Source: Chamaelirium japonicum
Taxonomy: Eukaryota > Streptophyta > Magnoliopsida > Liliales > Melanthiaceae
Assembly: GCA_947650365.1 (NCBI GenBank)
Contig: OX393550.1
Coordinates: forward strand, 98,011,424-98,075,423
Direction: 5' to 3'
DNA length: 64,000 bases
The notes beneath the pieces were generated by a model. It was not told where the DNA came from. It did not search any database and worked only from the letters and a program-made list of their open reading frames with translations. The translations under genes were made by a program, and so were the position numbers. How positions within the stretch are numbered: position 1 is the first letter of the stretch; each line of letters opens with the position of its first letter. Positions 12,093 to 64,000 of this stretch are shown here, piece by piece.

Positions 12093-12188
12093 CTAGCTAC
12101 TCCTGTACCGGCATCTTCGGTTGCTCCTGTACCAACAACTCGAAGTGCACCTGTACCGGCAACTCGAAGTGCACCTGTACCGGCATCT
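12093..12188. repeat. 24-bp coding-like minisatellite
   Basis: Units such as GCACCTGTACCGGCAACTCG occur about four times. In the plus frame starting at 12048 this reads as APVPATRS repeats. The repeat runs directly into the gypsy LTR fragment that starts at 12186, which closes the frame's plausible sequence. It may be a relic of a Pro/Ala-rich gag or linker. Confidence 0.7.
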
Positions 12189-12520
12189 CTTAAGGGTCCC
12201 TTTGATCTGCGTCTCCACGTTACATCGTGCGAGAGCTTTGGAGGGGTTGCCCAGGGCAGATCTTTAAAGGGTGAGGGTTTCTTGACAGGTTAAGAAGTGT
12301 TCGCCGTTGCTTTTGTCCCTTTTGTGCTTCGTGCTTTCTCGGCTGGAGGGTTTTTGGCTTCGCTCCTCGGTTTTCGTCTTCTTCGGCTCTGGCTAGATCT
12401 CGGCGTCTTTGATCGTCGGTTCACGGCGTTGATCGTGCTTTGGCTTTACTTTCGGCTTTGGCGTGGCTCTGGCTTCTGCTTTGCTTTGGCTTTACTTTCG
12501 GCTTTGGCGTGGATCTGCCT
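12186..12520 (-). mobile_element. Detached Tat-family LTR fragment
   Basis: This ~310-335 bp piece is nearly identical to 13438-13742 of the downstream LTR, in the same orientation (shared CTTAAGGGTCCCTTTGATC, GGGGTTGCCCAGGGCAGATC, CTCGGCGTCTTTGAT). The fragment starts at CTCTTAAGGGTCC, a sequence also present at the matching point in the full LTR. Its right end carries a small internal duplication of TTTGGCTTTACTTTCGGC. Confidence 0.85.

Positions 12521-13225: not shown

Positions 13226-13320
<95 letters not shown>
13224..13320. repeat. (CT)n followed by (AT)n microsatellite
   Basis: A CT-dinucleotide run (13224-13258) passes into an AT run (13259-13320) that abuts the outer end of the left LTR of the inverted duplication. 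Confidence 0.95.
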
Positions 13321-13322
<2 letters not shown>

Positions 13323-14132
13323 CTGTATGCACAGTAAAGGATTTGGGTCGTCTTTTTGCATAAAACGAGATTACAGAGGCCGGGACCCGGGGAGTCGGGT
13401 GCGTTGAAGATTTGATCAGGAGATTGTGGGAGAGATTCTCTTAAGGGTCCCTTTGATCCGCGTCTCCATGTTACTTCATGCGAGAGCTTTGGAGGGGTTG
13501 CCCAGGGCAGATCTTTAAAGGGTGAGGGTTTCTTGAGAGGTTAAGAAGTGTTCGCCGTTGCTTTTGTCCCTTCCGTGCTTCGTGCTTTCTCGGCTGGAGG
13601 GTTTTTGGCTTCGCTCCTCGGTTTTCGTCTTCTTCGGCTCTGGCTAGATCTCGGCGTCTTTGATTCTCGGTTCATGGTGTCGATTGTGCTTTGGCTTTAC
13701 TTTCGACTTTGGCGTGGCTCTGGCTTCTGCTTTGCTTTGGCGCTTGCGATTGAACGTAGAAGGGTAGAGGCTTGCGATGCTTTAGTTTTTCCGGACTTCA
13801 CGTCGTATCAGCTAGAACGTGCGGTGCTTTGCTCATGACCGTCGTAGTTGCTTGACTTTGGCACTTGCGTTGCTTTGGCGCGGGCTTTACTGGTGCTTTT
13901 ACTTCAGCTTCTTGTGTTGGCTTTTGCTTTGGCGTTGACTCGATCTTCTTCTCGAACGGCGATGACTACGTCTTCACTTCTCCTTTATTCTTCCGGCTTC
14001 CTCGATGGTTGTGGCGTCGACTTGATTTCTCTTCTCCGGTCTTCTTTGGCGTGATCGGAGTTGAGGACTTTGTTTTGAAGACGACGGGTGTAGCGCCGCT
14101 TCGGATGTCCTCCAAACTTTCTTCTTCGTGAA

Positions 14133-14490
14133 TGGAGCGGACGTTGTTGAAGACGACGGAGTGATGCCGTTTCGATCTTCTTCTTCGGGCTTTTGGGCTT
14201 GATCAGAGTCGAAGGCTTGATGAAGACGACGGGGTGATGACGCTTCGATCTTTTTCTTCGGGCTTTTGGGCTTGATCAGAGTTGAAGACTTGATGAAGAC
14301 AACAGGGTGATGCCGCTTCGATATTCTTCTCCGGGCTTTTGGGCTTGATCAGAGTCGAAGGCTTGATGAAGACGATGGGGTGATGCAGCTTCGATCTTCT
14401 TCTCCGGGCTTTTGGGCTTGATCGGAGTCGAAGGCTTGATGAAGATGACGGGGTGATGCCGCTTCGATCTTCTTCTCCGGCCTTTGCTTC
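14133..14490. repeat. 73-bp tandem repeat within the left LTR, ~4.5 copies
   Basis: GAGTCGAAGGCTTGATGAAG-type starts occur at 14206, 14279, 14352 and 14425, exactly 73 bp apart. This creates long false ORFs rich in Ser/Arg/Lys. The array is mirrored at 27740-28080. Confidence 0.92.
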
Positions 14491-14745
14491 TGGCGTTTTC
14501 GGAGTTGAAGGTTTCTTCTTCTTCGAGCTTTCTCCTTCGTGCACGGAGTCAAAGGGTTGATCTTCTTGTGCAAGGGTCTTCACGTTGATGAGGACTTTCA
14601 ATGGACTAAGCCGGTCCCAAAGGGATAGGCTTGCCCGAGCCTCGAGAAGCCGTGGGTTGTTGAAGGCGTGTCTCCTCCTTTGCAGAGCTTCTTTGCTTCT
14701 GTCTTCGACTTCAACCTCTTGAGCCTTCCCCTTCCCCTTCCCCCT

Positions 14746-14755
14746 CTATTTATAG
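14746..14755 (-). promoter_or_regulatory. TATA box of the left LTR
   Basis: CTATAAATAG on the minus strand, at the position matching 3178-3187 of the first LTR. Confidence 0.55.
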
Positions 14756-15306
14756 GTGAAGGGGGGTGGGGAGAGATATGGGAAGGTTCATTCAAATCCC
14801 TTGATTATCTCTCCCATAACTATCCAAGATTCATTTCCTCATTTATGGGAGAATAAACCTTCATTTATTTACCTTTTCTGGCGGAGTAGTTATGGCCCAA
14901 TCATTTTGAATTTTATTTGAATCTTGCACATTAAATCGATGGCGACTCGGCTTCGTTTCTTGTCCGTCGGATCGAGGGATCGACGTAGATCCACGCTTGT
15001 GTAGACGTCTACACAACTTCTCCCTGCGCATGGCGGTTTTCTTTCATTTTTCTTCTTTTTCTTTCTTTTCTTTTCTTTCTTTCTTTTCTTTCCTTTTCTT
15101 TCTTTCTTGTTTGGGCCAGCCGCTCCTTACCCGTGGGTAGGGGACATAGTTTTCCAAGGGGGGCCGGGTGGCCCCCACTTGTGGATGGGTCTACCTGACC
15201 CCTCTTTTGGCTCGGGTCGGGTGTTGCGGGTCCGGGTTCGTGTTGGGTTCGCCCCCAGGTCAGTGCACGCGAGTCGGGTTCGGATTTGATAAATTTTGTG
15301 TCTACA

Positions 15307-15321
15307 AATGCCCCCTCAAGG
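15307..15321 (-). other. Polypurine tract, left arm
   Basis: The minus strand reads CCTTGAGGGGGCATT immediately before the LTR start TGTAGACAC. Plus-strand DNA priming site position and purine run both fit. Confidence 0.75.
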
Positions 15322-15412
15322 ACGAGTGCACTGGCAGAAAACGCGTAACCCTCGCTTACGTAGGAAACGCATAGTGCTTGTCCTTGATTCCTTTTCGGGA
15401 CAGGGTTGAGGC

Positions 15413-15422
15413 CTATTTAAAG
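15413..15422 (+). promoter_or_regulatory. Candidate antisense promoter TATA box, left arm
   Basis: CTATTTAAAG lies about 100 bp inside the 3' LTR on the strand of the antisense ORF. The same motif is conserved in the right arm (26825-26834). Conservation in both arms and the downstream antisense ORF suggest an internal promoter; transcription is inferred, not seen. Confidence 0.45.
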
Positions 15423-16249
15423 ACCCCTACCCCTCTGCTCCTTTCATTCAGCGTCGGTTCTTGCGGAGGGCTGAAGCTTGGAGATCGCCGTCGGAAGAGG
15501 CTCCCTAGGGTTGCATAGGACTCGCTCCGTCTTCCTAGTTGTTGCCTCTTTCCCTGGCGGCGGCGGCGGTGGCTGTTGAGGAGGATCGGTGCTAGGGGAC
15601 CATCGGCGATAGTGTGTGAGTTGAAGATCGTTGTGAAGGCGGGCTTGAAGCGAAGAGGGGAAGATGATCGGGGTGATGAGGACGGAGCACCGTGGTCGAG
15701 GTGTCAGCTTCCTCTTCTTTCTTCTTTTTCTTCCTTCTTTTTTTTTTCTTTTTCTGTCTCGCGGAGGTAGCAACAGCAGTAGGCGGCGGCAGCCTGTGGC
15801 TTCGGGCGTTGGGGCCAGGCGGCGGCGGCGGCCGGCGGCTTCAAGCGCGGGGGCCAGGCGACGTGCGGGGTGCGGAGGCCAGGCGGTGGTGCCGGGGGCA
15901 TAGGCGGCCGATGGTCGGGGTTGACTCAGGTAGGTCCCGATCGGGTCGGAGAAGAGGGAGCTGCGGGCTCGAGTCGGGCGGGCTCCAACCGGATCGGAGA
16001 AAAAGGGGGGGCTGCGGGCCCCTTTTTTGGCTCGTATCGTGTGGCCCCCGCCCCCTGCGCGGGTTCGGATGGGAGAGACGGGGGTTGCGGACCCTTCGGT
16101 CTTTCTCTCTTTTTTTTTGAACTTCGGGTTTGTTGGGTCTCTTGTCTGTTTGAGCGGCATGAGGATGGGTGACCACTAGGAGCTCCCCCCCTTTTTTTTT
16201 GACTCTCCTTCTCTGGTCTCGATTGGCTTCTTTTCGTTGGATTTAGCTA

Positions 16250-19200
16250 GTCTCTGCTGGACTTGACTTGCTTCTCGTTGTCTCCTTTTAGGGCTCGAGC
16301 TTTCGAGAGCTTGATTTAGCCAGGGTGGATTGCTGAGGACTTCTCCGATGAGAGTAAGTACCTTCGGTTCCCCCTTACTCGGGTGTACCGTTACCGCACT
16401 TCGAAGAGAGATGATCGTCTGTCTATGCTCCGGATTCCCATCCATGAGCGCATCACAGAGGATGGAGTTGCCGACCCGAATTACGGGATGCCGAAGCTGA
16501 ACGAGAAGGTTTATACTGACGAGGCGATCTCCATGAAGCTTCTTTGTCCGAGCTTGAGTCTACCCTTTCATCACTGTGCCGAAGATTTTGTGCCTACACC
16601 GGTAGTGGCTTCGAAGATCTGCTCTCGTTTGACTTGATGGGGTGTTGACTCCTAGCCTCGTGGGGACGTTCAGTACCTCTGCGGCTTTCACGAGTGATGG
16701 GCGAGCTTTCAGAAGTTTTCGGGGCAGAGCCTGAGACGAAACCGTTGACGAAGTTCCTAGTACCAGCTTGTCGAGAGTATAGTCGTCCTGGGGGGATGTA
16801 CCGAGCTCTCTGCGAACTCTGGTGCCTGGATACCAACATGTTTCTTACTGGAGCGGAGAAATAGGGATTTCTCTCCGCGATGTTCACATCGTCATCGGAT
16901 GCCCCGAGGTGCGAAACTACTATCAAGAGGAGGTGCTGGCTCTGAAGGAACTAATGGATACCAGTTTCTCCCCGAGTTCTTGTCTTCTTTTGTTCAAGGC
17001 GTATGTCATCATTGCGGCACGAGACCAAACGGATCAAGTTCGTCATTCGTCTTGGGTAAATTTTTGGTTCAGGGGTGAGTACCGGTCTCTTGCCCCTTCT
17101 GCTCACCCGATGTGGAAAATTACCCAGATGAAGAGGCCTTCATTGCGATCCTTCGTGAGACCGATTGAGTCTTTAGCCCGAGTGAACCATTCAATGGTGG
17201 GGAAACGAAGCCCGTGGGAGGTTCTTGGTTTGGAGCGCTCGACAGCGAGGAATGACGAGCAGTTTATCGAGCCGCCAGGTTGGCCATTTTCCTTTGTCGA
17301 TTCGTGCTTACTTGTACCGGCGAAGCCATCCGTCCTGAGACTTTTCTTGTAGCGTCCCGGATGGCAAGGGGAGAGCTCTTCAATTTGGCTTTAGCGATCT
17401 TGTGCGCCTTATACCAGGGGCTTAGTGGCACGTACTGGAGCTTTTCTAATTCGGACAATGCCAAAGGGAAAGTTGGACGGTCTAACTCCTTTGCCCCCCC
17501 TGCACTATTTGTACGGTTGGGTGGCCCTTCATTTTTCGAAAGGGATCTTCACCAGACATGGGCATCCAGCAGATTCGCTGTTCTTGCCGGGCATAAGGGG
17601 GATTCTGAATGCCTTCATCAGCTGGGAACGCCCGAAGGAGTGTGCAGAACGCTTTTGAGGAAGATGGAAGGCACGGACTTAGAGTTCACATCAGAGCACT
17701 TAGTGTTGCCTCTAGAAAGGTCGACGGTTTTTGACAATGAGGAGATTTCTGACGGCTTGTACTGGAATATGGTCAGCTGTAGCCCAGGCTATTTGGTTTG
17801 GCGCCGAGGAGATATAGTGGAGGTGGAGCAGTATTCTCCTTATCGATTTGCTCACCAACAGGGGTTTCGACAGGAGGTGCCCAGCATGCCGCAGTGGCTA
17901 CAGGGGCGTATAAGCCCGCAGGAGGGTTATCACCTATGGGCTTCCCTTTATGCTCGGTTGACTGGCTGTAGTTTCTTTCCTGGGACTAAGTCGGGATCAA
18001 GAGATGCTGCGACCCCAAGTTACTGCAAATGGATCGAAAAGCGAATATCTCTACTACTTGCTAGCCTTCCGATTGATGTCTTGGCGGGTAGCGAGTTTAA
18101 GGACTTCAGTTTTGATCCTTCGGTGGGATCGGAGGATCGCCGCCTCTGGCTGGGAGCTCATAGGGCCGGAAAGACTTGTAGTCGCCTTTCCAGCGCCCGT
18201 CGGGTTTCTTCTTTGGCTCTCGTGTCAGGGGTCGACCCTGTGAGTGCCCTCGGGCCGTCCATTTTTCAGAAGTCAGCCGTTGAAAGTGTCCTGCCTAAGA
18301 GACGAAAGTTGTGTATTCCACGTGGGGTGACTTTGAGGGCACCCTGTCAGGCAGAGGATATTGAGGAGCTTGGTCTTCTAGGGAATGAGGTAATCCCCCT
18401 ATCCGGGATAGCTCTGTCCGACTTCGCAGGTATACATCGAGTTTTTTCTTTTGCGTCTTCTTTGATTTCTGGGGACTTCATTATGCTGAGTAGTGCGTCT
18501 TTTTTTCTTTGAGCAAACTCCGTTGTAGTAGTGGAACGTGAGCTGGATTCTTCGAAAGCGTGCTAGGGGCGTTCGCTTACTGAGGCTGCGCATGAAGCGC
18601 TTGGGAAGTGTGGGCTAGACGTTCCCCTCGATGACCTGGCCCTCCTCGGGCTTTGCGGAGAGAACTTTCTCAGTGACGACATAGATATGGATGATATCGA
18701 CGTCGATGCTTTGTCCTTTCACGAGGAGGTCGAGGTTCGAGTGTCGGCAGACGGCATGCTTCGATTGCCGTTTTCTCAGGCTTGGTGGAGAAAACGGTTG
18801 GTACGGCAGCCGCGATAGTTCCTCCAGTCTTGCCGACCTTGCTAACGAAGATAACTCTCGCGGCGGCCGCAGCAGTGGGTAAAGCTTTGCCCACGTACTT
18901 TGAGGCGCCTCGCCAGATTTTGTGACTGAGAAGCAAAGTTTCAGAGTTCCTTCTCAATAGTTGTCGGCAATAAATCAGGTCGACGCTTGAGTCGTTCCAG
19001 GATGAGGGGTTTGGCGCTCTCTAAAACTGGTGGTCTGATGATGGTGCCGAGTTTTGTGCGAGCCTGGCGAAGTTCAAGGTGGATAGTTCTTCGTTTGCCG
19101 CACAAGTGAGCTTGCTCGTGACGGATAGTGAAGCTTATCGTTCCTGACAGGCTCTATTGGAGGGGAGTATTCCTTCTGAGCTAGTGACAGCAGAGAGTTT

Positions 19201-19480
19201 GTGTCAGTCGGAGCGCCAGCTTGTGGATGTGACTTCAAGTTTGATGAAGGCGTAGAAGAATGTGGAATCGGTGCAAGCTTCTCTTCAGAAAGCAGAATCT
19301 CGCTTGGAGCGAGCCGAGACTGCGGAAAGAACTTTGAAGGCGAGCTTCTTGAAGCAGCAAGCAGATTTGTCAGCTCGTCGCGAGCTCATGAACACTCGCC
19401 CTTTAGAGTTGCAGCAGGTGGAGGCCACTAGAGAGGAGTTGTTGCGACGCCTTCGAGCTTTGGATACCCTCTACTAGTTG
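16250..19480 (+). pseudogene. Antisense extra ORF of the Tat-like element, left copy (frameshifted)
   Basis: It encodes, antisense to pol, the extra protein known between pol and the 3' LTR of many Tat-lineage elements; its function is unknown. Readable blocks in order: LRIPIHERITEDGV and SLSLPFHHCAEDFVPTPVVA (16430-16620); GISLRDVHIVIGCPEVRNYY, resembling the plant mobile domain (16860-17230); a long middle block with VLPLERSTVFDN and YCKWIEKRIS (17425-18512); and a C-terminal coiled coil with QASLQKAESRLERAE (19200-19477). Frames change several times. One clear break is a 1-bp loss near 17655 relative to the right copy. Stops also lie near 16635. The first ~170 residues read upstream of 17352 use yet another frame. 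Not functional as it stands. Confidence 0.75.
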
Positions 19481-20270
19481 TGTCTTGTTTCGGCATTTCG
19501 CACTGCAGTCTCTTTTTTCGGACTCACGCCATGTACTGCTTTCCTTTGAATATCATTTAATAATATCCTGTTTCTTGGACCGTTTGCATAGAATATTGTT
19601 TGCTTTTTTTTTTGTCAGACTGAACCTGAAGTGACTTCTCAGACTGCCTACGTACCCCCTGAGGGGGATCAAGTCACACGTAGTTCACGTTTTTTTTTTT
19701 TTTGAAGTGCGGCCTTGCCTTAGGCATAGTACCTTTTGAGGTACTTCTCATTGATAGGACCGAGCACGAGCCCTTCTGGCGTTGTGAGGAGGTATGTGCC
19801 GCTGGAGTAGACTTTTTTGACGGCGTGCGGTCCATCTCATTTGCCGTCGAACTTCTTTCCTCCTCGATGTGAGAGAATGATGGGGCGCTTAACTGCCAGC
19901 ACTAGCTCTCATATTTGGAAGGATCGAGGACGCATCTTCTTGTTGAAGGCGCGAGTCAATTTGGTTTGATAGCACTCCAAGGTTGCTGAGTTTCGAGACG
20001 CCTTTCATCTAGTGCCTCCAATTCTGCCAGGCGGAGCTGGGTGTTGTCGTCACTAGTGAGACCTTCTTGGATTGCTATCTTTAGCAATGAGATCTGGAGC
20101 TCGAGTGGAAGAACGGCTTCTACCCCGTAGACGAGGGAGTATGGAGTTACTTGCGTCGGAGTGCAGAAGGATGTGCGGTAGGCCCATAATGCTTCACCCA
20201 TGTTCGTGCCAGTTCTTCTTCAACTTCGAGACTACTTTCTCCAAGAGTTTGTAAAGAGTTTTGTTGAAAG

Positions 20271-21047
20271 CAGTGTTGTCAAGGCGACGAGGCGCGCCTG
20301 AGGCGCAAGGGGCTGCTAGAGCCTGAGGCGCAAGGCGCAAATAAGGCGCACGCCTTAGTGTGTAAGGCACAAAAATATATAATTTGCTTTAAAAATTAAT
20401 AATAATTGTCAAAAAAATTCTAAAATTTATAAAAAAGATATAATTTATGAAAAAAATATCATGCATTGCAATGTCTCATACCAATTAGCTTGTTGCAGGA
20501 TTGCGGCCACCTACACACGCAGAGAAAGAGAGCGCGGGGGCCGGGGGACTGCAGTGAGAGAGAGAGAGGGGGCTGCAGTGAGAGAGAGAGAGAGGGGGCT
20601 GCAGTGAGAGAGTGAGAGCGAGAGAGAGGGGGCTGCAGTGAGAGAGAGAGAGGGGGGGCTGCAGTGAGAGAGAGAGGGGGCTGCAGTGAGAGAGAGAGGG
20701 GGCTGCAGTGAGAGAGAGAGAGAGGGGGGGGGGATGCAGTGAGAGAGAGAGAGAGAGAGGCGGAGGACTTCAGGTGGTCCTCGACTCCTCACAGGCTCAC
20801 AGAGAGAGAGAGGCAGAGGAGGACTTCAAAGAGAGAGAGAGAGAGAGGCAGAGGACTTCAGGTGGTCCTCGACTCCTCACAGGCTCACAGAGAGAGAGAG
20901 AGAGAGAGTGAGAGAGAGCTGCGAAGGTCACTCACCTCCAGGCTGCAGGCTCTCGAAGGAGCTGCGGGCTCTCGACGCCTCACACAGAGAGAGGCGGAGC
21001 GGCGACGGCTCACCGGAGAGAGGTGGAGTTGTAGGCTCTCGACGCCT

Positions 21048-21105
<58 letters not shown>

Positions 21106-21510
21106 GAGCGGCGGTGGAGGAGGATCTTCCTCGACGGCTCGCCGCTCACCGGAGAGAGGCGGAGCTGCAGGCCGTCGAGTCTCGACGTCTCAAAGAGAGA
21201 GAGAGAGGGAGGCGCGGCCGTCGAGTCTCCCGGATCTCCCGGATCGCTGAAGGCTGCCGCTGAACCCGAGCCCGCTAAACCCTAAACCCGAGCCTCTTCA
21301 GTATATTTAAACAGAAAAAAAACCCAAAACAAACGGTTCAAAAAAAAACCGGAAAAAACCCGGAAATAACCGGGCGCAGTAAGGCGCGCGCCTGTACGCC
21401 TTGCGCTTGGTTCGTGAGGCGCTGCAAGGCGTGCCTGAGCCACGCCTTGCTGTGCTCGCCTTACCAGGATGCGCCTGAGGCCCGCGCCTCACTGCGCCTT
21501 GACAACTATG
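20271..21510. mobile_element. Non-autonomous hAT-like element (1240 bp) inside the left integrase
   Basis: The termini CAGTGTTGTCAAGGCG and (inverted) CATAGTTGTCAAGGCG match at 14 of 16 bases. A perfect 8-bp target duplication, GTTGAAAG, flanks it at 20263-20270 and 21511-21518. Subterminal DNA is rich in short AGGCGC/GCCTGAGGCGC motifs at both ends. The inside is mainly GA-rich simple repeat with no transposase. Its absence from the right arm shows that it came after the inverted duplication, or hit one arm only. Confidence 0.88.
20520..21230. repeat. (GA)n-rich internal region of the hAT element
   Basis: Many GAGAGAGA blocks are separated by repeated GGGGGCTGCAGTGAGAGAG and a ~105-bp duplicate (TTCAGGTGGTCCTCGACTCC at ~20768 and ~20858). 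Long ORFs in all frames here are an effect of the dinucleotide repeat. Confidence 0.9.
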
Positions 21511-21613
21511 GTTGAAAGCTTCCGCTAGACCGTTGGCTGGAGTGTTGTACATCGTTGAGCACCTCTGCTTAATGTCGTACTTGGCACAGAACTGGCTGAC
21601 AGCGGCATTCTTG

Positions 21614-21884
21614 AACTTTATTTGAATCTTGCACATTTATGGGAGAATAAACTCGAGTCAAAAGAGGGGTCGGGTGGACCCGTCCGTAAGTGGGGGCCAC
21701 CGGCCCCCCTTGGAAAACCGTGCCCCTACCCACGGGTAGGGAGCGGCTGGCCCAAACAAGAAAGAAAGAAAGAAAATGAAAGAAAAGAAAGAAAGGAAAA
21801 AAAAGAAGAAAAAGGAAAGAAAACCGTAATGCGCGGGGGGAGGTTGCGTAGATGTCTACACAAGCGTGGATCTACGTGCAAGAT
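21614..21884. other. Central spacer of the inverted duplication, scrambled LTR fragment
   Basis: The stretch 21652-21877 matches an interior LTR segment (compare 27018-27240), in right-arm orientation. At both edges the same phrase TGCAAGATTCAAATAAAG runs straight into integrase text. At the left edge the LTR pieces are out of order: TTTATGGGAGAATAAA touches the phrase directly. Confidence 0.8.
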
Positions 21885-22559
21885 TCAATGTGCAAGATTC
21901 AAATAAAGTTCAAGAATGCCGCTGTCAGCCAGTTCTGTGTCAAGTACAACATTAAGCAAAGGTGCTCAACGATGTACAACGCTTCAGCGAACGATCTAGC
22001 GAAAGCTTTCAACAAAACTCTCTGCAAGCTCTTGGAGAAAGTCATCTCGAAGTCGAAGAAGGACTGACACGAACGCATGGGTGAAACATTATGGGCCTAC
22101 CGCATGTCCTTCCGCATTCCGACGCAAGCAACTCCGTACTCCCTCGTCTACGGGGTAGAATTCGTTCTTCCACTCAAGCTCTAGTTTCTATCGCTCAGGA
22201 TAGCAATCCAAGAAGGTCTCACTAGTGACGACAACACCCAGCTCCGCCTGGCAGAATTGGAGGCACTAGATGAAAGGCGGCTCGAAGCTCAGTAACGCTT
22301 GGAGTGCTATTAAGCCAGATTGACTCGCGCCTTCAACAAGAAGATGCGTTCTCGATCCTTCCAAATAGGAGAGCTAGTGTTGGTAGTCAAGCGCCCCATC
22401 ATTCTCTCACATCGAGGAGGAAAGAAGTTCGACGCCAAATGGGATGGACCGCACGCTGTTAAAGAAATCTACTCCAGCGGCGCATACCTCCTCACAATGC
22501 CAGAAGGGCTCGCGCTCGGCCTTATCAACGGCAAGTACCTCAAAAGGTACTATGCCTAA
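21885..22559 (+). pseudogene. C-terminal integrase fragment, right arm
   Basis: Mirror of the left fragment: KFKNAAVSQFCVKYNIKQRC, AFNKTLCKLLEKVISKSKKD, then a TGA in place of Trp, HERMGETLWAYR, SLVYGVEFVLPLKL, further stops near 22180 and 22295-22312, and an open final block from 22320 (TRAFNKKMRSRSFQIGEL, KFDAKWDGPHAVKEIY) to the pol stop at 22557-22559. The final block is the C-terminal DNA-binding tail of integrase without a chromodomain. Confidence 0.82.
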
Positions 22560-22759
22560 AGGAAGGCCGCACTTAAAAAAAAAAACGTGAACTACGTGTG
22601 ACTTGATCCCCCTCAGGGGGTACGTAGGCAGTCTGAGAAGTCACTTCAGCTTCAGTCGGACAAAAAAAAAAGCAAACAATATTCTATGCAAACGGTCCAA
22701 GAAACAGGATATTATTAAATGATACTCAAAGGAAAGCAATACATGGCGTGAGTCCGAAA

Positions 22760-25700
22760 AAAAAGATTGCAGTGCGAAATGCCGAAACAAGACAACTAGT
22801 AGAGGGTATCCAAACTCGAAGACGTCGTAACAACTCCTCTCTAGTGGCCTCCACCTGCTGCAACTCTAAAGGGCGAGTGTTCATGAGCTCACGACGATCT
22901 GACAAGTCTGCTTGCTGCTTCAAGAAGCTCTCCTTCAAAGTTCTTTCCGCAGTCTCGGCTTGCTCCAAGCGAGATTCTGCTTTCTGAAGAGAAGCTCGCA
23001 CTGATTCCACATTCTTCTGCGCCTTCGTCAAACTTGAAGTCACATCCGCAAGCTGGCGCTCCGACTGACACAAACTCTCATTTGATGTCGCTAGCTCGGA
23101 AGTACTCCCTTCCAATAGAGCCCGTCGGGAACGATAAGCTTCACTATCAGTCACGAGCAAGCTCATCAGCGCGGCAAACGAAGAACTACCCACCTTGAAC
23201 TTCACCAAACTCGTACAAAACTCGGCACCATCAGCAGATTACCAGTCTTAGAGAGCGCCAAAACCCTCATCCTGGAACGACTCAAGCGTCGACCTGATGT
23301 ACTGCCGACAACTGTTGAGAAGGAACTCCGAAACTTTGCTTCTCGGTCTCAAAATCTGGCGAGGCGCCTCAGAGTACGTGGGCAAAGCTTATCCACTGCT
23401 GCGGCCGCCGCGGGAGTTATCTTTGTTAGCAAGGTCGTCAAAACTGGAGGAACTGTTGCCGCCACCGCACCAACCGTCTTCTTCACCAAGCTTAAGAAAA
23501 CGGCGATCGGAGTATGCCGTCTGTTGACACTCGAAACCTCAGCCTCCTCGTGAAAGGACAAAGCATCGACGTCGATATCATCCAGATCTATGTCGCCACT
23601 GGGAAAGTTCTCCCCGCAAAGCCCGAGGAGGGCTAGGTCATCCAGGGGAACGTCTAGCCCACACTTCCCAGGCTCTTCATGCGCAACCTCAGTAAAATAA
23701 TGCCCCTGACACGCTTTCGAAGAATCCAGCTCACGTTCCACTACTATAACGAAGTCTGCTCAAAGAAAAAAAACGCACTACTCAGCATGATGAAGTCCCC
23801 AGAAATCAAAGAAGAAGCAAAAGGAATAACTCGATGCATACCTGCGAAGTCGGACAGAGCTATCCCGGATGGGGGGATCACCTCATCACCTAGAAGACCA
23901 GGCTCCTCAACATCCTCTGCTTGACAGGGCGCCCTCAAAGTCACCCCATGTGGAATACACAACTTCCGTCTCTTTGGCGGGACACTTTCAACGACTGTCT
24001 TCTGAAGAATGGACGGCCCGGGGGCACTCACAGGGTCGACCCCTGATACGGGAGCCAAAGAAGAAACCCGACGGGCGCTGGAAAGATGACTACAAGTCTT
24101 GGCCCTCTGAGCTCCCAGCCAGAGGCGACGATCCTCCGATCCCGCTGAAGGATCAAAACTGAAGTCCTTAAACTCGCTACCCGACAGGACATCAATCGGA
24201 AGGCTAGCAAGTAGTGGGGATATTCGCTTTTCGATCCATTTGCAGTAACCTAGGGTCGCGACATCCCTTGATCCCGTCTTGGTCCTAGGAAAGAAACTGC
24301 AGTCAGTCAACCGAGCATAAAGGGAAGTCCAGAGCTGATAACCTCCATGCGGGCTTATACGCCCCTGTAGCCGCTGTGGCATGCTGGCCACCTCCTGCCG
24401 AAACCCCTGTTGGCGAGCAAATCGATGAGGAGAATACTGCTCCACCTCCACTGTATCTCCTTGGTGCCAAACCAAATAGCCTGGGCGACAGCTGACCATA
24501 TTCCAGTACAAGCCGTCAGAAAGCTCGTCATTGTCAAAAACCGTCGACCTTTCTAGAGGCAACACTGAGTGCGCCGATGTGAACTCGAAGTCTGTGCCTC
24601 CCATCTTCCTAAAAAACGTTCGAGCACACTCTTTCGGGCGTTCCCAGTTGATGAAGGCATTCAGGATCCCCCCTATGCCCGGCAAGAACGTCGAATCTGC
24701 TGGATGCCCATGTCTGGCGAAGATCCCTTTCGGAAAATGAAGGGCCACTCAACCGTACAAATAGTGCAGGGGGGCAAAGGAGTTAGACCGGCAAACTTCC
24801 CCTTTGGCGTTGTCCGAATTAGACAAGCTCCAATACGTGCCACTAAGCCCCTCGTATAAGACGCACAAGATCGCTGGAGCCACAAATTGAAGAGCTCTCC
24901 CCTCGCCATCCGGGACGCTACAAGAAAAGTCCCAGGACGGATGCTTCGCCGGTTCAAGGAAACACGAATCGACAAAGGAAAATGGCCAACCAGGCGGCTC
25001 GATAAACTGCTCGCCACTCCTCGCTGTCGTACTCTAAACCAAGAACCTCCCATGAGCTTCGTTTCCCCACCATTGAATGCTTCACTCGGGCTAAAGACTC
25101 AATCGGCCTCACGAAGGATCGCAGTGAATGCCTCTTCATCTGGGCAATTTTCCACATTGGGTGAGCAAAAGGGGCAGGAGACCGGTACTCACCCCTGAAC
25201 CAAAAATTTACCCAAGACGAATGCTGAACTCGATCCGATTGGTCTCGTGCCGCAATGATGGCATACGCCTTGAACAAAAGAAGACCAGAACTCGGGGAGA
25301 AACTGGTATCCATCAGATCCTTCAGAGCCGGCACCTCCTTTTGATAGTAGTTCCGCATCTCGGGGTATCCGGTGACGATGTGAACATCGCGAAGAGAAAT
25401 TCCTATTTCTCTCGCTCCAGTAAGAAACGTGTTGGTATCCGGGCACCAGAGTTCGCAGAGAGCTCAGTACATCCCCCCAGGACGACTATACTCTCGACGA
25501 GCTGGTCTAGGAACTTCGCCAACGGTTTCGTCTCAGGTTCTGCCCCAAAAACTTCTGAAAGCTCGCCCATCCACTCGCGAAAGCCGCAGAGGTACTAAAC
25601 GTCCTCACGAGGTCAGGAGTCAACACCCCATCGAATCAAACGGGAGCAGATCTTCGAAACCACTACCGGCATAGGCACAAAATCTTCGGCACAGTGAAGG

Positions 25701-26013
25701 AAGGGCAGACTCAAGCTCGGACGAAAAGCTTTATGGAGATCGCCTCGTTAGTATAAACCTTCTCGCTCAGCTTCGGCATCCCGCAATCCGCGTCGGTAAC
25801 TCCATCCTCTGTGATGCGCTCATGGATGAGAATCCGGAGTATCGACAGACGATTACCTTTCTTCGAAGTGTGGTAGCGGTACACCCGAGTAAGGGGGAAA
25901 CGAAGGTACTTTCTTCCATCGGAGAAGTCTTCAGCAACCCACCCTGGTGAAACCAAGCTCTCGAAAGCTCGAGCCTTGAAAGAACACAAGGAGAAGCAAG
26001 TCAAGTCCAGCAT
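22760..26013 (-). pseudogene. Antisense extra ORF of the Tat-like element, right copy
   Basis: Reverse-complement counterpart of 16250-19480. Order on the minus strand: GWVAEDFSDGRKYLRFPLTR and ILIHERITEDGVTDADC (26013-25711); a middle region (25358-24954: GISLRD-like text, ELLSKGG and PIESLARVKHSM in shifting frames); a long open block of 334 residues at 24748-23744 (HFPKGIFARHGHPADS, VLPLERSTVFDNDE, YCKWIEKRISPLLASLP); and a 160-residue C-terminal coiled-coil block at 23208-22726. Better preserved than the left copy in the 24748-23744 block, since it lacks the frameshift at the matching position. Function of the family is unknown. Confidence 0.75.
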
Positions 26014-26824
26014 AGACTAGCTAAATCCAACGAATAGAAGCCAATCAAGACCAGTGAAGGAGAGTCAAAAAAAAGAGGGGGGGGGGAGCTCCTAGTGGTC
26101 ACCCATCCTCATGCCGCTCAAGCAGACAAGCGACCCAGCAAACCCAAAGTTAAAAAAAAAGAGAGAAAGACCGAGAGGTCCGCAACCCCCCTCTCTCCCA
26201 TCTGAACCAGCACAGGGGGCGAGGGCCACACGCCACAAGCCAAAAGGGGGGGACCCGCAGCCCCCCCTTTTTCTCCGATCCGGTCGGTGCCCGCCCGACT
26301 TAGGCCCGCAGCTCCCTCTTCTCTGACCCGATCGGGACCCGCCCGAGTTGGCCTCGACCACCGGCCGCCTGGCCTTCGCACCTCACACGCCGCCTGGCCC
26401 CTGCACCCGAAGCGGCAAGCCGTCGCCGCCTGGCCCCCGTGCCCGCGCCGCACGCCGTCGTTGCTGCCTCCGCGAGCCAGAAAAAGAAAAAAAAAAGAAA
26501 GAAGGAAAAGAAGAAGATGGAGAAAGAAGAAGAAAGAGGAGGAAGCCGACACCTTGACCACGGTGCTCCGTCCTCATCACCCCGATCATCTTCCTCTCTT
26601 CGCTTTAAGCCCGTCTTTGCGATGATCTTCAACTCACGCACCATCGCCGATGGTCCCCTAGCACCAATCCTCCGCAACAGCCGTCGCCGCCGACGAAAGA
26701 GGCGACAACTAGGAAGACGGAGCGAGTCCTGTGCAACCCTAGGCAGCCCCTTCTGACGGCGGTCTCCAAGCTTCAGCCCTCCGATAGAACCGATGCTGGA
26801 TGAAAGGAGCAGAGGGGTAGGGAT

Positions 26825-26834
26825 CTTTAAATAG
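26825..26834 (-). promoter_or_regulatory. Candidate antisense promoter TATA box, right arm
   Basis: CTATTTAAAG on the minus strand, the mirror counterpart of 15413-15422, ~100 bp from the LTR. Confidence 0.45.
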
Positions 26835-26925
26835 GCCTCAACCCTGTCCCGAAAAGGAATCAAGGACAAGCGCTATGCGTTTCCTACGTAAGCGAGGGTT
26901 ACGCGTTTTTCGTCGGCACACTCGT

Positions 26926-26938
26926 CCTTGAGGGGGAA
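26926..26938 (+). other. Polypurine tract, right arm
   Basis: CCTTGAGGGGGAA directly abuts the LTR. Compared with the left arm about 13 bp are missing at the boundary, including the LTR's first bases TGTAGACACA. Confidence 0.7.
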
Positions 26939-28920
26939 TTTATCAAATCCGAATCTGACTCGCGTGCACTGACTCGGGGGCGAACCCGACACGAACTCAG
27001 ACCCGCAGCACCCGACCCGAGCCAAAAGAGGGGTCGGGTGGACCCATCCGCAAGTGGGGGCCACTTGCCCCCTGGAAAACCGTGCCCCCCTACCCACGGG
27101 TAGGGAGCGGCCGGCCCAAACAAGAAATAAAAGAAAAGAAAAGAAAGAAAGAAAAGGAAGAAAAAGAAGTAAAAGGAAAGAAAACCGCCATGCGCGGGGG
27201 GAGGTTGTGTAGACGTCTACACAAGCGTGGATCTACGTCAATCCCTCGATACGACGGACAAGAAACGAAGCCGGGTCGCCATCGATTTATTGTGCAAGAT
27301 TCAAATAAAATTCAAAATGATTGGGCCATAACTACTCTGCCAGAAAAGGAAAATAAATGAAGGTTTATTCTCCCATAAACGAGGGAATGAATCTTGGATA
27401 GTTATGGGAGAGATAATCAATGGTTTGAATGAACCTTCCCATATCTCTCCCCACCCCCCTCATCTAAAAATAGAGGGGGAGGTGGAAGGCTCATGGGGTC
27501 GAAGTCGAAGACAGAAGCAAAGAAGCTCTGTAAAGGAGGAGACACACCTTCAACGACCCAAAGCTTTACGAGGCTCGGGCAAGCCTATTCCTTTGGGACC
27601 GGCTTAGTCCATTGAAAGTCCTCATCAACGTGAAGACCCTTGCACAAGATCAACCCTTCGACTCCGTGCACGAAGGAGAAAGTTTAGAGAAGAAGAAACT
27701 TTCAACTCCGAAGATGCCAGAAGCAAAGGCCGGAGAAGAAGATTGAAGCGACATCACCCCGTTGTCTTCATCAAGCCTTCGACTCCGATCAAGCCCAAAA
27801 GTCCGGAGAAGAAGATCGAAGCGGTATCACCCCGTCGTCTTCATCAAGCCTTCAACTCCGATCAAGCCCAAAAGTCCGGAGAAGAAGATCGAAGCGGCAT
27901 CACCCCGTCGTCTTCATCAAGCCTTCAACTCCGATCAAGCTCAAAAGCCCGGAGAAGAAGATCGAAGCGGCATCACCCCGTCGTCTTCATCAAGCCTTCG
28001 ACTTCGATCAAGTCCAAAAGCTCGGAGAAGAAGATCGAAGCAGCATCACCCCGTCGTCTTCAACAACATCCGCTCCATTCACGAAGAAGAAAGCGTGGAG
28101 GACATCCAAAGCGGCGCTACACCCGTCGTCGTCAAAACAAAGTTCTCAACTCCGATCACGCCAAAGAAGCCCGGAGAAGAGAAATCAAGCCGACGCCACA
28201 ACCGTCGAGAAATCCGGAAGAATAACGGAGAAGTGAAGACATAACCATCGCCGTTTGGAAAGAAGATCGAGTCAACGCCAAAGCAAAAGCCAACACAAAA
28301 AGCTGAAGCAAAAGCACCGGTAAAGCCTGCGCCAAAGCAACGCAAATGCCAAAGCCAAGCAACTACGACGGTCACGAGCAAAGCACCGCATGTTCTAGCC
28401 GATACGACGCGAACTAAAGAATCGCAAGCTTCTACCCTTCTACGTTCAAGCGCAAGCGCCAAAGTAAAGCAGAAGCCAGAGCCACGCCAAAGCAAAGCCA
28501 AAGCCGAAAGTAAAGCCAAAGCACGATCGACGCCGTGAACCGACGATCAAGGACGCCGTGAACCGACGATCAAGGACGCCGAGATCTAGACAGAGCCGAG
28601 GGAGACATGAAGACCCAGGAGCAAAGTGAAAAACCCTCTAGCCGAGAAAGCGCGAAGCACGGAAGGGACAAAACCAACGGCGAACACTCCTTAACCTTTC
28701 AAGAAACCCTCACCCTGTAAAGATCTTTGCCCTGGGCAACCCCTCCAGAGCTTTCGCACGAAGTAATGTGGAGACGCGGAACAAAGGGACCCTCCAGAGG
28801 ATCTCTCCCACAATCTTCTAATCAAATCTTCGTCGCACCTGGCTCACCACCCCCGAGTTCCGGCCGCTGTAATCTCATTTTGTACAATAAAGACGACCCG
28901 AATCTTTTTCTGCGCATACA
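26937..28920 (+). mobile_element. Outer LTR of the right arm (3' LTR, first ~11 bp lost)
   Basis: From ATTTATCAAATCC near 26939 to TGCGCATACA ending at 28920. Same order of pyrimidine tract, TATA remnant and 73-bp repeats as the left LTR, in opposite orientation. The missing 5' terminal bases would prevent normal integration of this LTR. Flanks of the two outer LTR ends (TATCGC on the left, ACCGCC on the right) show no target duplication. Confidence 0.86.
27740..28080. repeat. 73-bp tandem repeat within the right LTR
   Basis: Mirror of 14133-14490: four to five units containing CTTCATCAAGCCTTC and GGAGAAGAAGATCGAAGCGG. It generates the long repetitive false ORFs at 27743-28244. Confidence 0.9.
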
Positions 28921-29552
28921 ACCGCCTAGCCGCCTTAACTACACTGATTGAAATATTCACATGTTATCTTAAGCAAAGATGTTAGGTTAATTTCTGGATC
29001 CATAAATATTTGGTATGATTTCATCGTTTAAACAAAAAGCATTTAGGGGAAACCATCATTGATATGAAGATGTAGAATTGGTATCATACCAAATGGTTCC
29101 CACTAATATTTTTCAATAACTGCACTATAGTCATTTGACATAAACGATTAAATCATAAGGGGCATGTTTTTGTGATTGTACCTTCCGTGCTAAAAAATTT
29201 GTCCGTAAAGGATTTAATAGTAAGTTTTTGGATTTAAATAATATTCAGACATACCATGATCTCCAATGAATGCGTAGGTAAACATTGTTAATTGTTTGCT
29301 TATAAATTTTTTTGTTGACATTGTTAAAATCTTCACCTTGTTGATATTTGGTTTATATCGAAATCCTGAGTATAGCATCATCAAATAAATAAGTACATGC
29401 CTCAACAAGATCAAACCATACCTTTCCTGAAGCTCAAACTCTTGCTTGTAGTTCATATAGTTCGGTGTATGGCGCACATGAGTTCGTCCTTTATCGATTC
29501 AGTGAAAACCTCTGCCATAATCTTGCCTTCTCTCTTCTTACTATATTGGTAT
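28921..29552. other. No supported gene; flanks the non-coding LTR element
   Basis: Unassigned DNA. An 87-codon ORF on the minus strand (29214-29477) was considered but lacks motifs and a splice-consistent extension. The last five bases (GGTAT, 29548-29552) are the left target-site copy of the next element. Confidence 0.5.
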
Positions 29553-37129: not shown

Positions 37130-38345
37130 ACTTATACCGGACAATTCATCTGCCAACCCCTTGCCGAAGGCCGACCGTTGCACCTACCGACCCCTTGCCA
37201 AGGGTCAGCCAAGGGCATGTCTGATGACTCGCTATCCAGGGCCGACTGGAAGGAAAGTAGCTCGAAGCTACTGCTGTTTGGGTTGATGTTGAGGTGGTTC
37301 GATGACTATTCGAAAGAATATGCCGACCCTCTGCCAGGGGCCGACAAATTTAAAAGTTTGCCTGCCAACCTGCTATCCGGGACCGACCATCGCGCCCGCT
37401 GACCCCCTGCCAAGGGCTGACCAGAGGCGTGTCTGCTGACCCGCTATCCGGGGCTGACCGTCGTGCCTGCCGACCCCTGCAAGGGTCAGACAGGGGTGTG
37501 TCTACCGATCCGCTGTCCAGGGCCGACTGTCACTCTAGTTGACCCCCTGCCAAGGGCCTGCCAGGGGTGTGTCTACCGACCCGTTGTTCGGGGCCGCTTG
37601 TCGCACCCGCCAACCCCCTGCCAAGGGCCAGCCAGGAGCGTGACTACCGACCCACTATCCAGGGCCGCTCGTCGCACCAGCTGACCCCCTGCCAAGGGTC
37701 GGCCAGGTGCGTGTCTGCCGACCAGCTGTTTGGGGCCGACCGTTGCGCCCGCGACCCCCTACCAAGGGCAAGCTAGGGGCGTGTCTGCCGACCCACTGTC
37801 CGGGGCCAGCCGTCGCACCCGCCGACCCCCTGTCAAGGGCCGACTAGGGGCGTGTTTGCCGACCCGCTGTCTAGGGCCGACCATCGCGTCCACTGACCCC
37901 CTGCCAAGGGCTGGCTAGAGGCGTGTCGGTCGACCCTCTGTCCGGGGTTGGCTGTCGCACTCGTCGACCCCCTGTTAAGGACTGGCCAAGGGCATGTCTG
38001 TCGACCGCTGTTCAGGGTCGACTGTCACGCCTGCCGACCCCCTGCCAAGGGTCGGCCAGAGGCATGTCTGCCGACCTGCTGTTTAGGGCCGACTGTCTTC
38101 CCCGCCGATCCCTTGCCAAGGACTGGCCAGGGGCATGTCTACCGCTCCGCTGTCTGGGGCCAACCGTCGCGCCTGCCGACCCCCTGCTAAGGGCTGGCTA
38201 GGGGCATGCCCACCGACCCGCTGACTAGAGCCAATCGTCATGCCCGCCGACCCCCTGCTAAGGGTCGGCCAAGGCATGCCCGCCGACCAACTGTCCGGGG
38301 CCGACCGTCGTGCCCGCCGACCCCTTGCCAAGAGCCAGCCAAAGG
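37130..38345. repeat. ~70.5-bp GC-rich minisatellite, about 17 copies
   Basis: GACCCCCTGCCAAGGGC recurs with spacing 70-71 bp (e.g. 37401, 37683, 37895), alternating with GCGTGTCTGCCGACCCGCTG and GGGGCCGACCGTCGCGCC. Because the unit is not a multiple of three and lacks stops, ORFs appear in several frames. They are products of the repeat, not genes. Confidence 0.93.
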
Positions 38346-38600: not shown

Positions 38601-38714
38601 GGGGAGCCCGATCATTGGCTCGACCGACCAATCTGCCATGAGGGGGTGGGGGGTAGGTCACGGGGGTGTTGCCGGCGACTCCGACCGACTAGGCCCTGTT
38701 GGTTGGCCTTAAAA

Positions 38715-38985
38715 ACTCTAAACCCTAACCTTAAACCTAAAACCCCTAACCCTAAACCCTAACCCTAGAACGCTAAACCCAAAACCTAAAACCCTAACAC
38801 CCTAACCCTAGAACCCTAACCCTAAAATCCTAACACCCTAACCCTAAAACCCTAACCCTACTAAAATCCTAACCCTAACCCAAGAACCCTAAACCAAAAC
38901 TTAAAACCCTAATACCCTAACCCTAAACCTAAAATCCTAACACCCTAACCCTAGAACCTAAACCCTATCTTGACTCTAACCGTAA
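38715..38985. repeat. Degenerate interstitial telomere-like array (CCCTAA/CCCTAAA)
   Basis: More than 25 CCCTAA words, many in the forms AACCCTAACCCTA and AAACCCTAAC, mixed with variants such as CCCTAGAA and CCTAACAC. Both the 7-bp plant-type and 6-bp spacing occur. Single orientation (C-rich strand is plus). Confidence 0.9.
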
Positions 38986-39099: not shown

Positions 39100-39940
39100 G
39101 GGGCCTTGGGCTTGTCGAGTGCCGACGCGATGGTCTCCTCTCAGAATTTGTCTTCGAGTGCCAAGGACAGGGCCTTGGGCTTGTCGAGTGTCAAGGCGAA
39201 GGTCGCCTCAGACTTTGTCTTCAAGTGCCAAGGGCAGGTCCATGAGCTTGTCGAGTGCCGAGGCGAAGGTCGCCTTGGACTTTATCTTCAAGTGCCAAGG
39301 GTAGGGCCTTGGGCTTCTTAAGTGCCGAGGCGATAGTTGCCTCGAGCTTTGTCTTCGAGTGCCAAGGGTAGGTCCTTGGGCTTGTTATGTGTCGAGATGA
39401 AGGTCGCCTCGGACTTTGTTTTCGAGTGCCAAAGGCAGGGCCTTGGGCTTGTTGAGTGTTGAGGTAGTGGTCGCCTCAGACTTTGTTTTCGAGTACCAAG
39501 GACAGGACCTTGGGCATGTTAAGTGCTGAGGTGAAGGTCGTCTTAGACTTTGTCTTCGAGTGACAAGGGGAAGGCCTTGGGTTTGTTGAGTGTCGAGGCG
39601 ATAGTTACCTTTGACTTTGTCTACGAGTTCCAAGGGTAGGGTGTTGGGCTTGTCGAGTGCCGAGGCAAAGGTTGCCTTGGACTTTGTCTTCGAGTGCCAA
39701 GGGCAGGGCCTTGGGCTATTCGAATACCGAGGCGGCGAGGGTACCTCAGACTTTGTATTCGAGTGCCAAGGTTGTCTCCTTGGACTTGGTTGCATGCCGA
39801 GGCAGCGAGGGCGCCTCGGACTTTGTATTCGAGTGCCAAGGCTATCTTCTTGGACTTTGTTGCATGCCGAAGCAGCGAGTGTACCTCGGATTTTGTCTTT
39901 GAGTGCCAAGGCTGTCTTCTTGGACTTTATGCCGGGCAAT
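39100..39940. repeat. 67-bp tandem array (~10 copies) passing into ~69-bp variants
   Basis: CTTGTCGAGTG-type landmarks occur at 39180, 39247, 39314, 39381, 39448, 39515, 39582, 39649 and 39716, an exact 67-bp spacing. From ~39720 the unit changes to ~69 bp containing GCATGCCGAGGCAGCGAG. The non-triplet period rules out a conserved coding repeat. Confidence 0.93.

Positions 39941-63296: not shown

Positions 63297-64000
<704 letters not shown>

What the first reader, a model, noticed from the sequence alone, without database searches (positions are those of the whole stretch)
13324..28920. 15.6-kb inverted duplication of a Tat retrotransposon 3' half: a natural long-hairpin locus
Seen: two long arms in mirror order (LTR, polypurine tract, antisense ORF, integrase end), both outer ends are U5 ends of LTRs, and no 5' half exists in either arm. 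Known: transcripts across inverted repeats make long double-stranded RNA that Dicer-like enzymes cut into siRNAs, and such loci can silence a whole TE family (for example Mu killer in maize). Inference: this locus could be a trans-acting silencer of its Tat family. Outer LTR promoters transcribe inward or outward depending on the copy, and the antisense promoters point toward the centre, so read-through of the spacer would give a hairpin.
Basis: partly seen in the sequence, partly recalled or inferred. Interest (0 to 1): 0.75.

Follow-up and report, generated by a model that had tools for sequence, protein, structure and literature searches.

The report
Inverted-dimer Tat retrotransposon insertion
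A plant chromosome holds two mirror-image halves of the same old retrotransposon, most likely inserted together as one faulty head-to-head copy; whether the locus makes silencing RNA remains untested.

Summary
The inverted repeat is real: 13324-21637 against 28920-21887, 91.6% identity over 6,951 paired bases, LTR U5 termini outside, integrase fragments meeting in the middle, no 5' half. An assembly fold-back is very unlikely (8.4% substitutions, 44 gap events, a 1.24-kb DNA transposon in one arm only). Both arms carry the same private junction (a U3 fragment fused to mid-integrase); at up to 3 mismatches the 1.52-Gb genome shows it only here, apart from one LTR resembling half of it. So the arms descend from one molecule. 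The centre is made of U3 fragments. The outer ends are exact LTR termini, flanked by 5 bp that match 4/5 (ATCGC/ACCGC). The arms differ slightly less than the two LTRs of six ordinary old copies. Best reading: one integration of a head-to-head (U5-U5) dimer cDNA made by aberrant reverse transcription. The silencer idea is untested and partly weakened: by orientation the LTR promoters point outward, and the best-controlled methylation-footprint test is null, though the internal region shows a weak CHH excess. It is an inverted variant of known template-switch insertions; among 91 family loci compared it is the only inverted pair.

The parts
13319..13323 (.). left 5-bp flank ATCGC, putative target-site duplication
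   Evidence: 5-bp TSD seen in another copy of the family (GTTGG/GTTGG)
13324..15306 (-). left-arm 3' LTR (U5 terminus at 13324, U3 start TGTAGACACA at 15306)
15307..20271 (-). left-arm internal region from PPT to integrase 3' part (includes first copy of the 9-bp insert TSD)
17280..18512 (+). antisense ORF (410 aa) of left arm, pointing to the centre; Plant mobile domain match below the curated cut-off
20272..21510 (.). 1,239-bp TIR element inserted in left arm only, 9-bp TSD GTTGAAAGC at 20263-20271/21511-21519; MULE-type by TSD length (recalled rule)
21511..21616 (-). left-arm integrase core fragment (continuation beyond the insert)
21617..21637 (-). U3 fragment fused to integrase (junction J1), left copy; its last bases overlap the next patch
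21634..21652 (-). 19-nt patch CATTTATGGGAGAATAAAC, exact match to left LTR 14840-14858, antisense U3
21651..21877 (+). U3-start fragment, matches 27015-27238 (89%) and 15217-14983 (87%)
21876..21888 (+). 13-nt duplicated U3 bit GTGCAAGATTCAA
21889..21908 (+). U3 fragment fused to integrase (junction J1), right copy
21909..26936 (+). right-arm internal region, mid-integrase to PPT (PPT region about 26927-26936)
23744..24748 (-). antisense ORF (334 aa) of right arm, pointing to the centre; very weak Plant mobile domain match
26937..28920 (+). right-arm 3' LTR, lacking about its first 15 bp, U5 terminus CATACA at 28920
28921..28925 (.). right 5-bp flank ACCGC, putative target-site duplication (4/5 match)

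Best explanation
One old insertion of a head-to-head dimer cDNA of a Tat-like Ty3 retrotransposon. Shown: two arms of one ancestor with a shared private U3-to-integrase junction, a centre made of short U3 patches, outer ends at LTR U5 termini, 5-bp flanks matching 4/5, and divergence like that of two LTRs of one insertion. Inferred: during reverse transcription the growing strand left the integrase region for U3 (skipping R-U5-PBS-gag-RT), made several short switches within U3, and was then joined head to head with its own or a sister copy, by snap-back switching onto a minus strand or by joining two sister cDNAs. The product had a U5 end on each side, which integrase inserted like an ordinary element. 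It is now decaying. Hairpin RNA would be expected only from antisense-ORF read-through.
For: J1 occurs exactly twice genome-wide, both here and inverted; the only other match within 3 mismatches lies in an LTR. The left centre junction is unique within 3 mismatches. In the 39 other places scored, homology starts only at 21901-21909; in 29 of 29 loci fetched of these, ordinary integrase sequence continues upstream. Arms are sisters among 29 copies, 98/96, and in an LTR tree of 16 rows, 93/93, just short of the strong mark. Homology stops at the LTR termini on both sides. Flanks ATCGC/ACCGC; chance of >=4/5 is 1.7%. Arm LTR K2P 0.0997 vs 0.106-0.145 for 6 single-element LTR pairs. Centre patches with about 1-4 nt overlaps, read by eye.
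Against: The TSD is imperfect. In the outermost ~0.48 kb the arms are not nearest relatives: 7 of 27 other LTR pieces score higher against the left end than the right arm does (508 bits), the best tree parts them (lnL 3.6 worse when held together), though p-AU 0.198 does not reject sisterhood; support was 72/85 with fewer rows. Outer/inner divergence ratio is 1.79 against 1.07-1.42 in controls (Fisher p 0.26). Short templated patches are also made by DNA break repair (PMC11724301, start of abstract in the listing). Only the best 40 candidates per genome search were scored, and the pattern search would miss a J1 copy with more than 3 mismatches. In 1 of 29 loci (L042) a same-orientation LTR end lies within 1.5 kb upstream of the integrase stretch, so other deletion derivatives exist.
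Confidence: 0.65

Rival explanations
1. Post-integration DNA event: a J1 deletion derivative (right arm) stood next to an older opposite LTR; a break in that LTR was repaired by copying the right arm inward (break-induced replication or fold-back), giving the left arm.
For: The outermost ~0.42 kb of the LTRs is more divergent (13.9%) than the inner part (7.8%), the highest ratio of 7 pairs, as if copying began inside the LTR; the outer ends are not nearest relatives; templated patches also fit break repair.
Against: The outer excess is not significant against controls (p 0.26), and sisterhood of the outer ends is not rejected (p-AU 0.198); it needs the 4/5 TSD match to be chance (1.7%).
Confidence: 0.2
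2. Two independent insertions of the family in opposite orientation that each lost the 5' half.
For: The family is large (8,685 first-look LTR candidates), and nested or adjacent insertions are common in plants (recalled).
Against: Both arms end in the same U3-integrase junction, found only here; they are each other's nearest relatives; none of the other 90 loci compared shows an inverted neighbour.
Confidence: 0.04
3. Assembly or sequencing fold-back artefact.
For: Long inverted repeats are a known artefact class (recalled); no reads are available here.
Against: 8.4% substitutions and 44 gap events between arms, an arm-specific TIR element with 9-bp TSD, and an asymmetric centre.
Confidence: 0.02
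4. The locus is an active trans-silencer: antisense-ORF read-through makes a hairpin that is diced into siRNAs against the family. (A claim about function; it can hold together with either origin.)
For: 85 perfect runs >=21 nt; antisense ORFs converge on the centre; internal region has CHH:CG deamination 77:32 vs 186:131 in three ordinary copies, p 0.03.
Against: LTR promoters face outward by orientation; LTR footprint null, 50:32 vs 348:269, p 0.48; 1.24-kb insert beside the loop; no RNA data.
Confidence: 0.12

Closest known systems
Template-switching complex LTR retrotransposon insertions (Sabot and Schulman 2007, PMC1950507; abstract and section 3, both parts, read)
   Same: A dimeric element product inserted once, judged by flanking 5-bp TSD and similar outer LTRs.
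   Different: Theirs are direct (same orientation), with two complete cores and an internal LTR; this one is inverted, U5-U5, with two incomplete cores and only U3 scraps in the centre.
[quoted passage not shown] passages seen)
   Same: Long region between integrase and 3' LTR with antisense ORFs; a related copy carries RT, RNase H, a second RNase-H-like domain and the integrase zinc domain.
   Different: No TRP28 (PF04195) match in the fragments scanned; the antisense ORFs give Plant mobile domain matches below the curated cut-off.
Mu killer
   Same: Inverted duplication of part of a transposon, able in principle to give hairpin RNA.
   Different: No transcript or siRNA shown here; different TE class; here the inverted repeat probably formed before integration.
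Short templated inverted insertions at DNA breaks in yeast (PMC11724301; only the start of the abstract in the listing)
   Same: Short patches copied by fold-back at junctions.
   Different: Those are mostly about 5-34 bp; here 7-kb arms end at LTR termini.

Membership tests
Template-switch complex LTR insertion | flanking 5-bp TSD showing a single integration | tested here: inconclusive
   ATCGC/ACCGC, 4 of 5; chance 1.7%
Template-switch complex LTR insertion | outer LTRs similar, as from one round of reverse transcription | tested here: met
   K2P 0.0997, below all 6 control LTR pairs; sisters 93/93; outermost 0.48 kb unresolved
Template-switch complex LTR insertion | internal LTR and two complete cores in direct order | tested here: not met
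   inverted, incomplete cores, U3 fragments only
Tat lineage Ty3 element | second RNase-H-like domain between RNase H and integrase (recalled as Tat hallmark) | tested here: met
   shown for one related copy, L014: RVT_1, RT_RNaseH, RVT_3, Integrase_H2C2 in order; the window arms lack this region
Tat lineage Ty3 element | long POL-3'LTR region with antisense ORFs | tested here: met
   about 5 kb; ORFs of 410 and 334 aa antisense
Retand sub-lineage | TRP28 domain in antisense ORF (97% of clusters, PMC11963269 passages) | tested here: not met
   [quoted passage not shown] the frames are broken, so a weak test
Mu killer-like silencer | hairpin transcript and siRNAs acting on the family | not testable with these tools
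   no RNA data; indirect footprint mixed
Mutator-like element (insert 20272-21510) | 9-bp TSD and terminal inverted repeats (recalled) | tested here: met
   GTTGAAAGC on both sides; ends AGTGTTGTCAAGGCG / CGCCTTGACAACTATG
Mutator-like element (insert 20272-21510) | mobilised by a MULE transposase | not tested
   no transposase was sought

The most novel reading that the evidence does not exclude
Plant LTR retrotransposons sometimes make palindromic cDNA with a U5 end on each side, and integrase inserts it as a unit. Each such insertion creates at once a ready-made long-hairpin locus of the element's own 3' half, a possible birth route for family-specific siRNA loci that needs no genomic rearrangement; this locus would be a fossil of one, with a faint CHH-deamination trace.
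Probability: 0.15. Interest if true: 0.72.

Novelty: new variant of a known kind. Interest (0 to 1): 0.42.

Why it matters
If the dimer formed before integration, a plant retrotransposon integrase can use two U5 ends, and aberrant reverse transcription is a one-step source of long inverted repeats, the structure that starts hairpin-siRNA loci. The signature used here (arms with a private shared junction, LTR ends outside, short TSD) can be scanned for in any plant genome, so how often retrotransposons create hairpin loci against themselves becomes countable.

Tried and rejected
Two independent insertions: rejected by the shared private junction. Assembly fold-back: rejected by divergence and the arm-specific insert. 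Foreign filler in the centre: first suspected for 21638-21652, then found to be LTR sequence. RdDM footprint: a hint in the 1.7-kb alignment (34:15 vs 61:65, p 0.018) was retested; null in LTR pairs (p 0.48), p 0.03 in a ~4-kb internal alignment that overlaps the first region. Different origin of the outer LTR ends: followed, not significant. In one search the right arm was not among the 40 places listed for the left end, although its score (508 bits) would place it there; a limit of the first look. Paralogous empty site: only the right flank was searched; no other match is listed for its first 638 bp. TSD controls: of six control elements only C4 (GTTGG/GTTGG) and C7 (CTTAG/CTTAC, with a changed LTR start) were read, by eye; C8 could not be (no U3 start in hand); C1, C5, C11 were not examined. 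Other inverted pairs within 25 kb: none among 125 places in 91 loci apart from this one (from; I left out 11 short LTR pieces, and one search was not included). In the tree five rows (L021, L030, L032, L037, L043) are only partly homologous and were flagged as long branches. PMC12312487 (passages) mentions head-to-head elements, but they are VANDAL21 DNA transposons. Nine paper searches (lists of 44 and 62 cut at 12 of 16 and 10 of 21) showed no inverted U5-U5 plant element in titles or the starts of abstracts; only open-licence papers are held.
Full report
OBSERVATION. Self-comparison of the window gives, in the region named, one dominant inverted repeat, 13324-20271 against 28920-22005 (7,031 columns, 89.1%), continued by 21511-21637 against 22013-21887 (93.7%). 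Over both blocks 6,364 of 6,951 paired bases agree (91.6%, K2P 0.091; 467 transitions, 120 transversions, 44 gap events); LTR and internal parts are alike (K2P 0.094 and 0.091). The feature is far beyond chance and lies at the stated coordinates.

ANATOMY. Each arm is the 3' part of a Ty3-type element: 3' LTR outside, PPT, a ~5-kb region with an antisense ORF, then the 3' part of the integrase core inside. The left arm is on the minus strand and the right on the plus strand, so the two are head to head. The LTR runs from TGTAGACACA to CATACA, about 1.98 kb. One related full-length copy (C4) shows these ends with a perfect 5-bp duplication GTTGG/GTTGG; another (C7), with a changed first dinucleotide, shows CTTAG/CTTAC; both read by eye, the other four controls not examined or not readable. 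Related copy L014 carries reverse transcriptase, RNase H, a second RNase-H-like domain and the integrase zinc domain in order, and L010 an integrase core fragment, as expected of the Tat lineage (lineage hallmark recalled). [quoted passage not shown] frames there are broken.

CENTRE. In the 39 other places scored for the family, integrase homology begins only at 21901-21909 of the window, and in 29 of 29 loci fetched the ordinary integrase sequence continues upstream for at least about 100 bp. One of them (L042) has a same-orientation LTR end within 1.5 kb upstream; none of the 29 has an inverted arm upstream. In the window both arms instead carry about 20 nt of U3 fused to integrase. Within 3 mismatches that fusion occurs exactly twice in the 1.52-Gb genome, both times here and in opposite orientation; the one further match, with 3 mismatches, lies in an LTR. 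Between the arms lie a 19-nt antisense U3 patch (exact copy of 14840-14858), 227 bp from near the start of U3, and a 13-nt duplicated U3 bit. The left centre junction is unique within 3 mismatches. No stretch of the centre is left unassigned.

COMMON ORIGIN. In a tree of the two arms and 29 other copies the arms are sisters with 98/96 support (five of the 29 rows are only partly homologous and long-branched, far from the arms). An LTR tree of 16 rows gives 93/93, just under the program's strong mark. In the outermost 0.48 kb alone the result goes the other way: 7 of 27 other LTR pieces score higher against the left end than the right arm does, and the best tree parts the arms, though holding them together is not rejected (p-AU 0.198; 72/85 for sisterhood with fewer rows). 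The outer/inner divergence ratio is 1.79 against 1.07-1.42 in six control LTR pairs, Fisher p 0.26. The shared private junction makes two independent insertions very unlikely.

ONE INSERTION. Homology stops at the LTR termini on both sides. The next 5 bp are ATCGC and ACCGC, 4 of 5; random 5-mers of the window match that well in 1.7% of draws. The arms' LTRs differ by K2P 0.0997, while the two LTRs of six ordinary copies differ by 0.106-0.145 (one pair, C5, over 1,049 columns only). So the arms look like two ends of one insertion of about the age of other copies. A duplication made after integration would be expected to carry flanking DNA or stop elsewhere (inference); here it stops at the ends that integrase uses.

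MECHANISM. Shown: structure, shared junction, LTR ends, near-duplication. Inferred: minus-strand synthesis left integrase for U3, made short switches, and ended in a head-to-head dimer by snap-back or by joining two sister cDNAs; two U5 ends were then integrated. The closest published case is the template-switch complex of Sabot and Schulman 2007 (PMC1950507; abstract and both parts of section 3 read), which uses the same two tests (TSD and outer-LTR similarity) but concerns direct dimers. The main rival is copying by break repair after integration; it gains a little from the outer-LTR divergence and from the short templated patches (compare PMC11724301, start of abstract only).

SILENCER CLAIM. 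The arms offer 85 perfect runs of at least 21 nt, 2,682 bases in all. But LTR transcription runs U3 to U5, that is outward from both arms; a degenerate TATA-like site within 28711-28725 and a poly(A) signal at 28886 fit this (motif roles recalled). Only the antisense ORFs (17280-18512 plus, 24748-23744 minus) point inward; the reference list of PMC11963269 cites a Grande accessory gene transcribed from its own promoter, so read-through is possible but untested here. As a proxy for RNA-directed methylation I compared C-to-T changes by context. LTRs: CHH:CG 50:32 here vs 348:269 in six control pairs, p 0.48. Internal region: 34:15 vs 61:65 in a first 1.7-kb alignment, p 0.018, and 77:32 vs 186:131 in a longer alignment that includes it, p 0.03, with three control copies whose branches include time before insertion. 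I call this weak and unresolved. In addition a 1,239-bp TIR element, whose terminal 187 bp is 92-98% identical in 14 other places listed (12 of them 96-98%), sits beside the loop in the left arm only.

HOW COMMON. Among 125 scored places from three searches (91 loci), 41 neighbouring pairs within 25 kb are in the same orientation and only this locus has inverted pairs. Searches score only the best 40 candidates of hundreds to thousands, so this is not a census. Nine paper searches showed no inverted U5-U5 plant element in titles or the starts of abstracts.

VERDICT. Observation confirmed; origin explained with moderate confidence as one inverted-dimer cDNA insertion; function as a silencer open and not favoured.

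Noticed in passing
window 12186-12490: A 305-bp piece of LTR 95% identical to the left arm's 13437-13741 but only 81% to the right arm: probably a later local duplication from the left LTR.
   Followed up: partly
window 1832 to about 3810: LTR of a related subfamily (72-78% identity to the arms' LTRs), minus orientation, without a partner in the window, with a GC-rich ~32-bp tandem array.
   Followed up: no
window 20272-21510: 1.24-kb TIR element with 9-bp TSD; a repeat with many places in the genome (97 matching pieces listed), one end strongly conserved and the middle matching only in parts.
   Followed up: partly
window 14144-14485 and 27725-28066: 73-bp tandem repeats inside the LTR in both arms (about 4.7 copies each).
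   Followed up: no
window 13258-13320 and 63474-63580: (TA)n microsatellite directly abutting the left putative TSD; another AT run near the window end.
   Followed up: no
window 37362-38332 and 39101-39841: Two minisatellite arrays (71-bp and 67-bp units), with degenerate telomere-like AAACCCT repeats at 38713-38967 between them.
   Followed up: no
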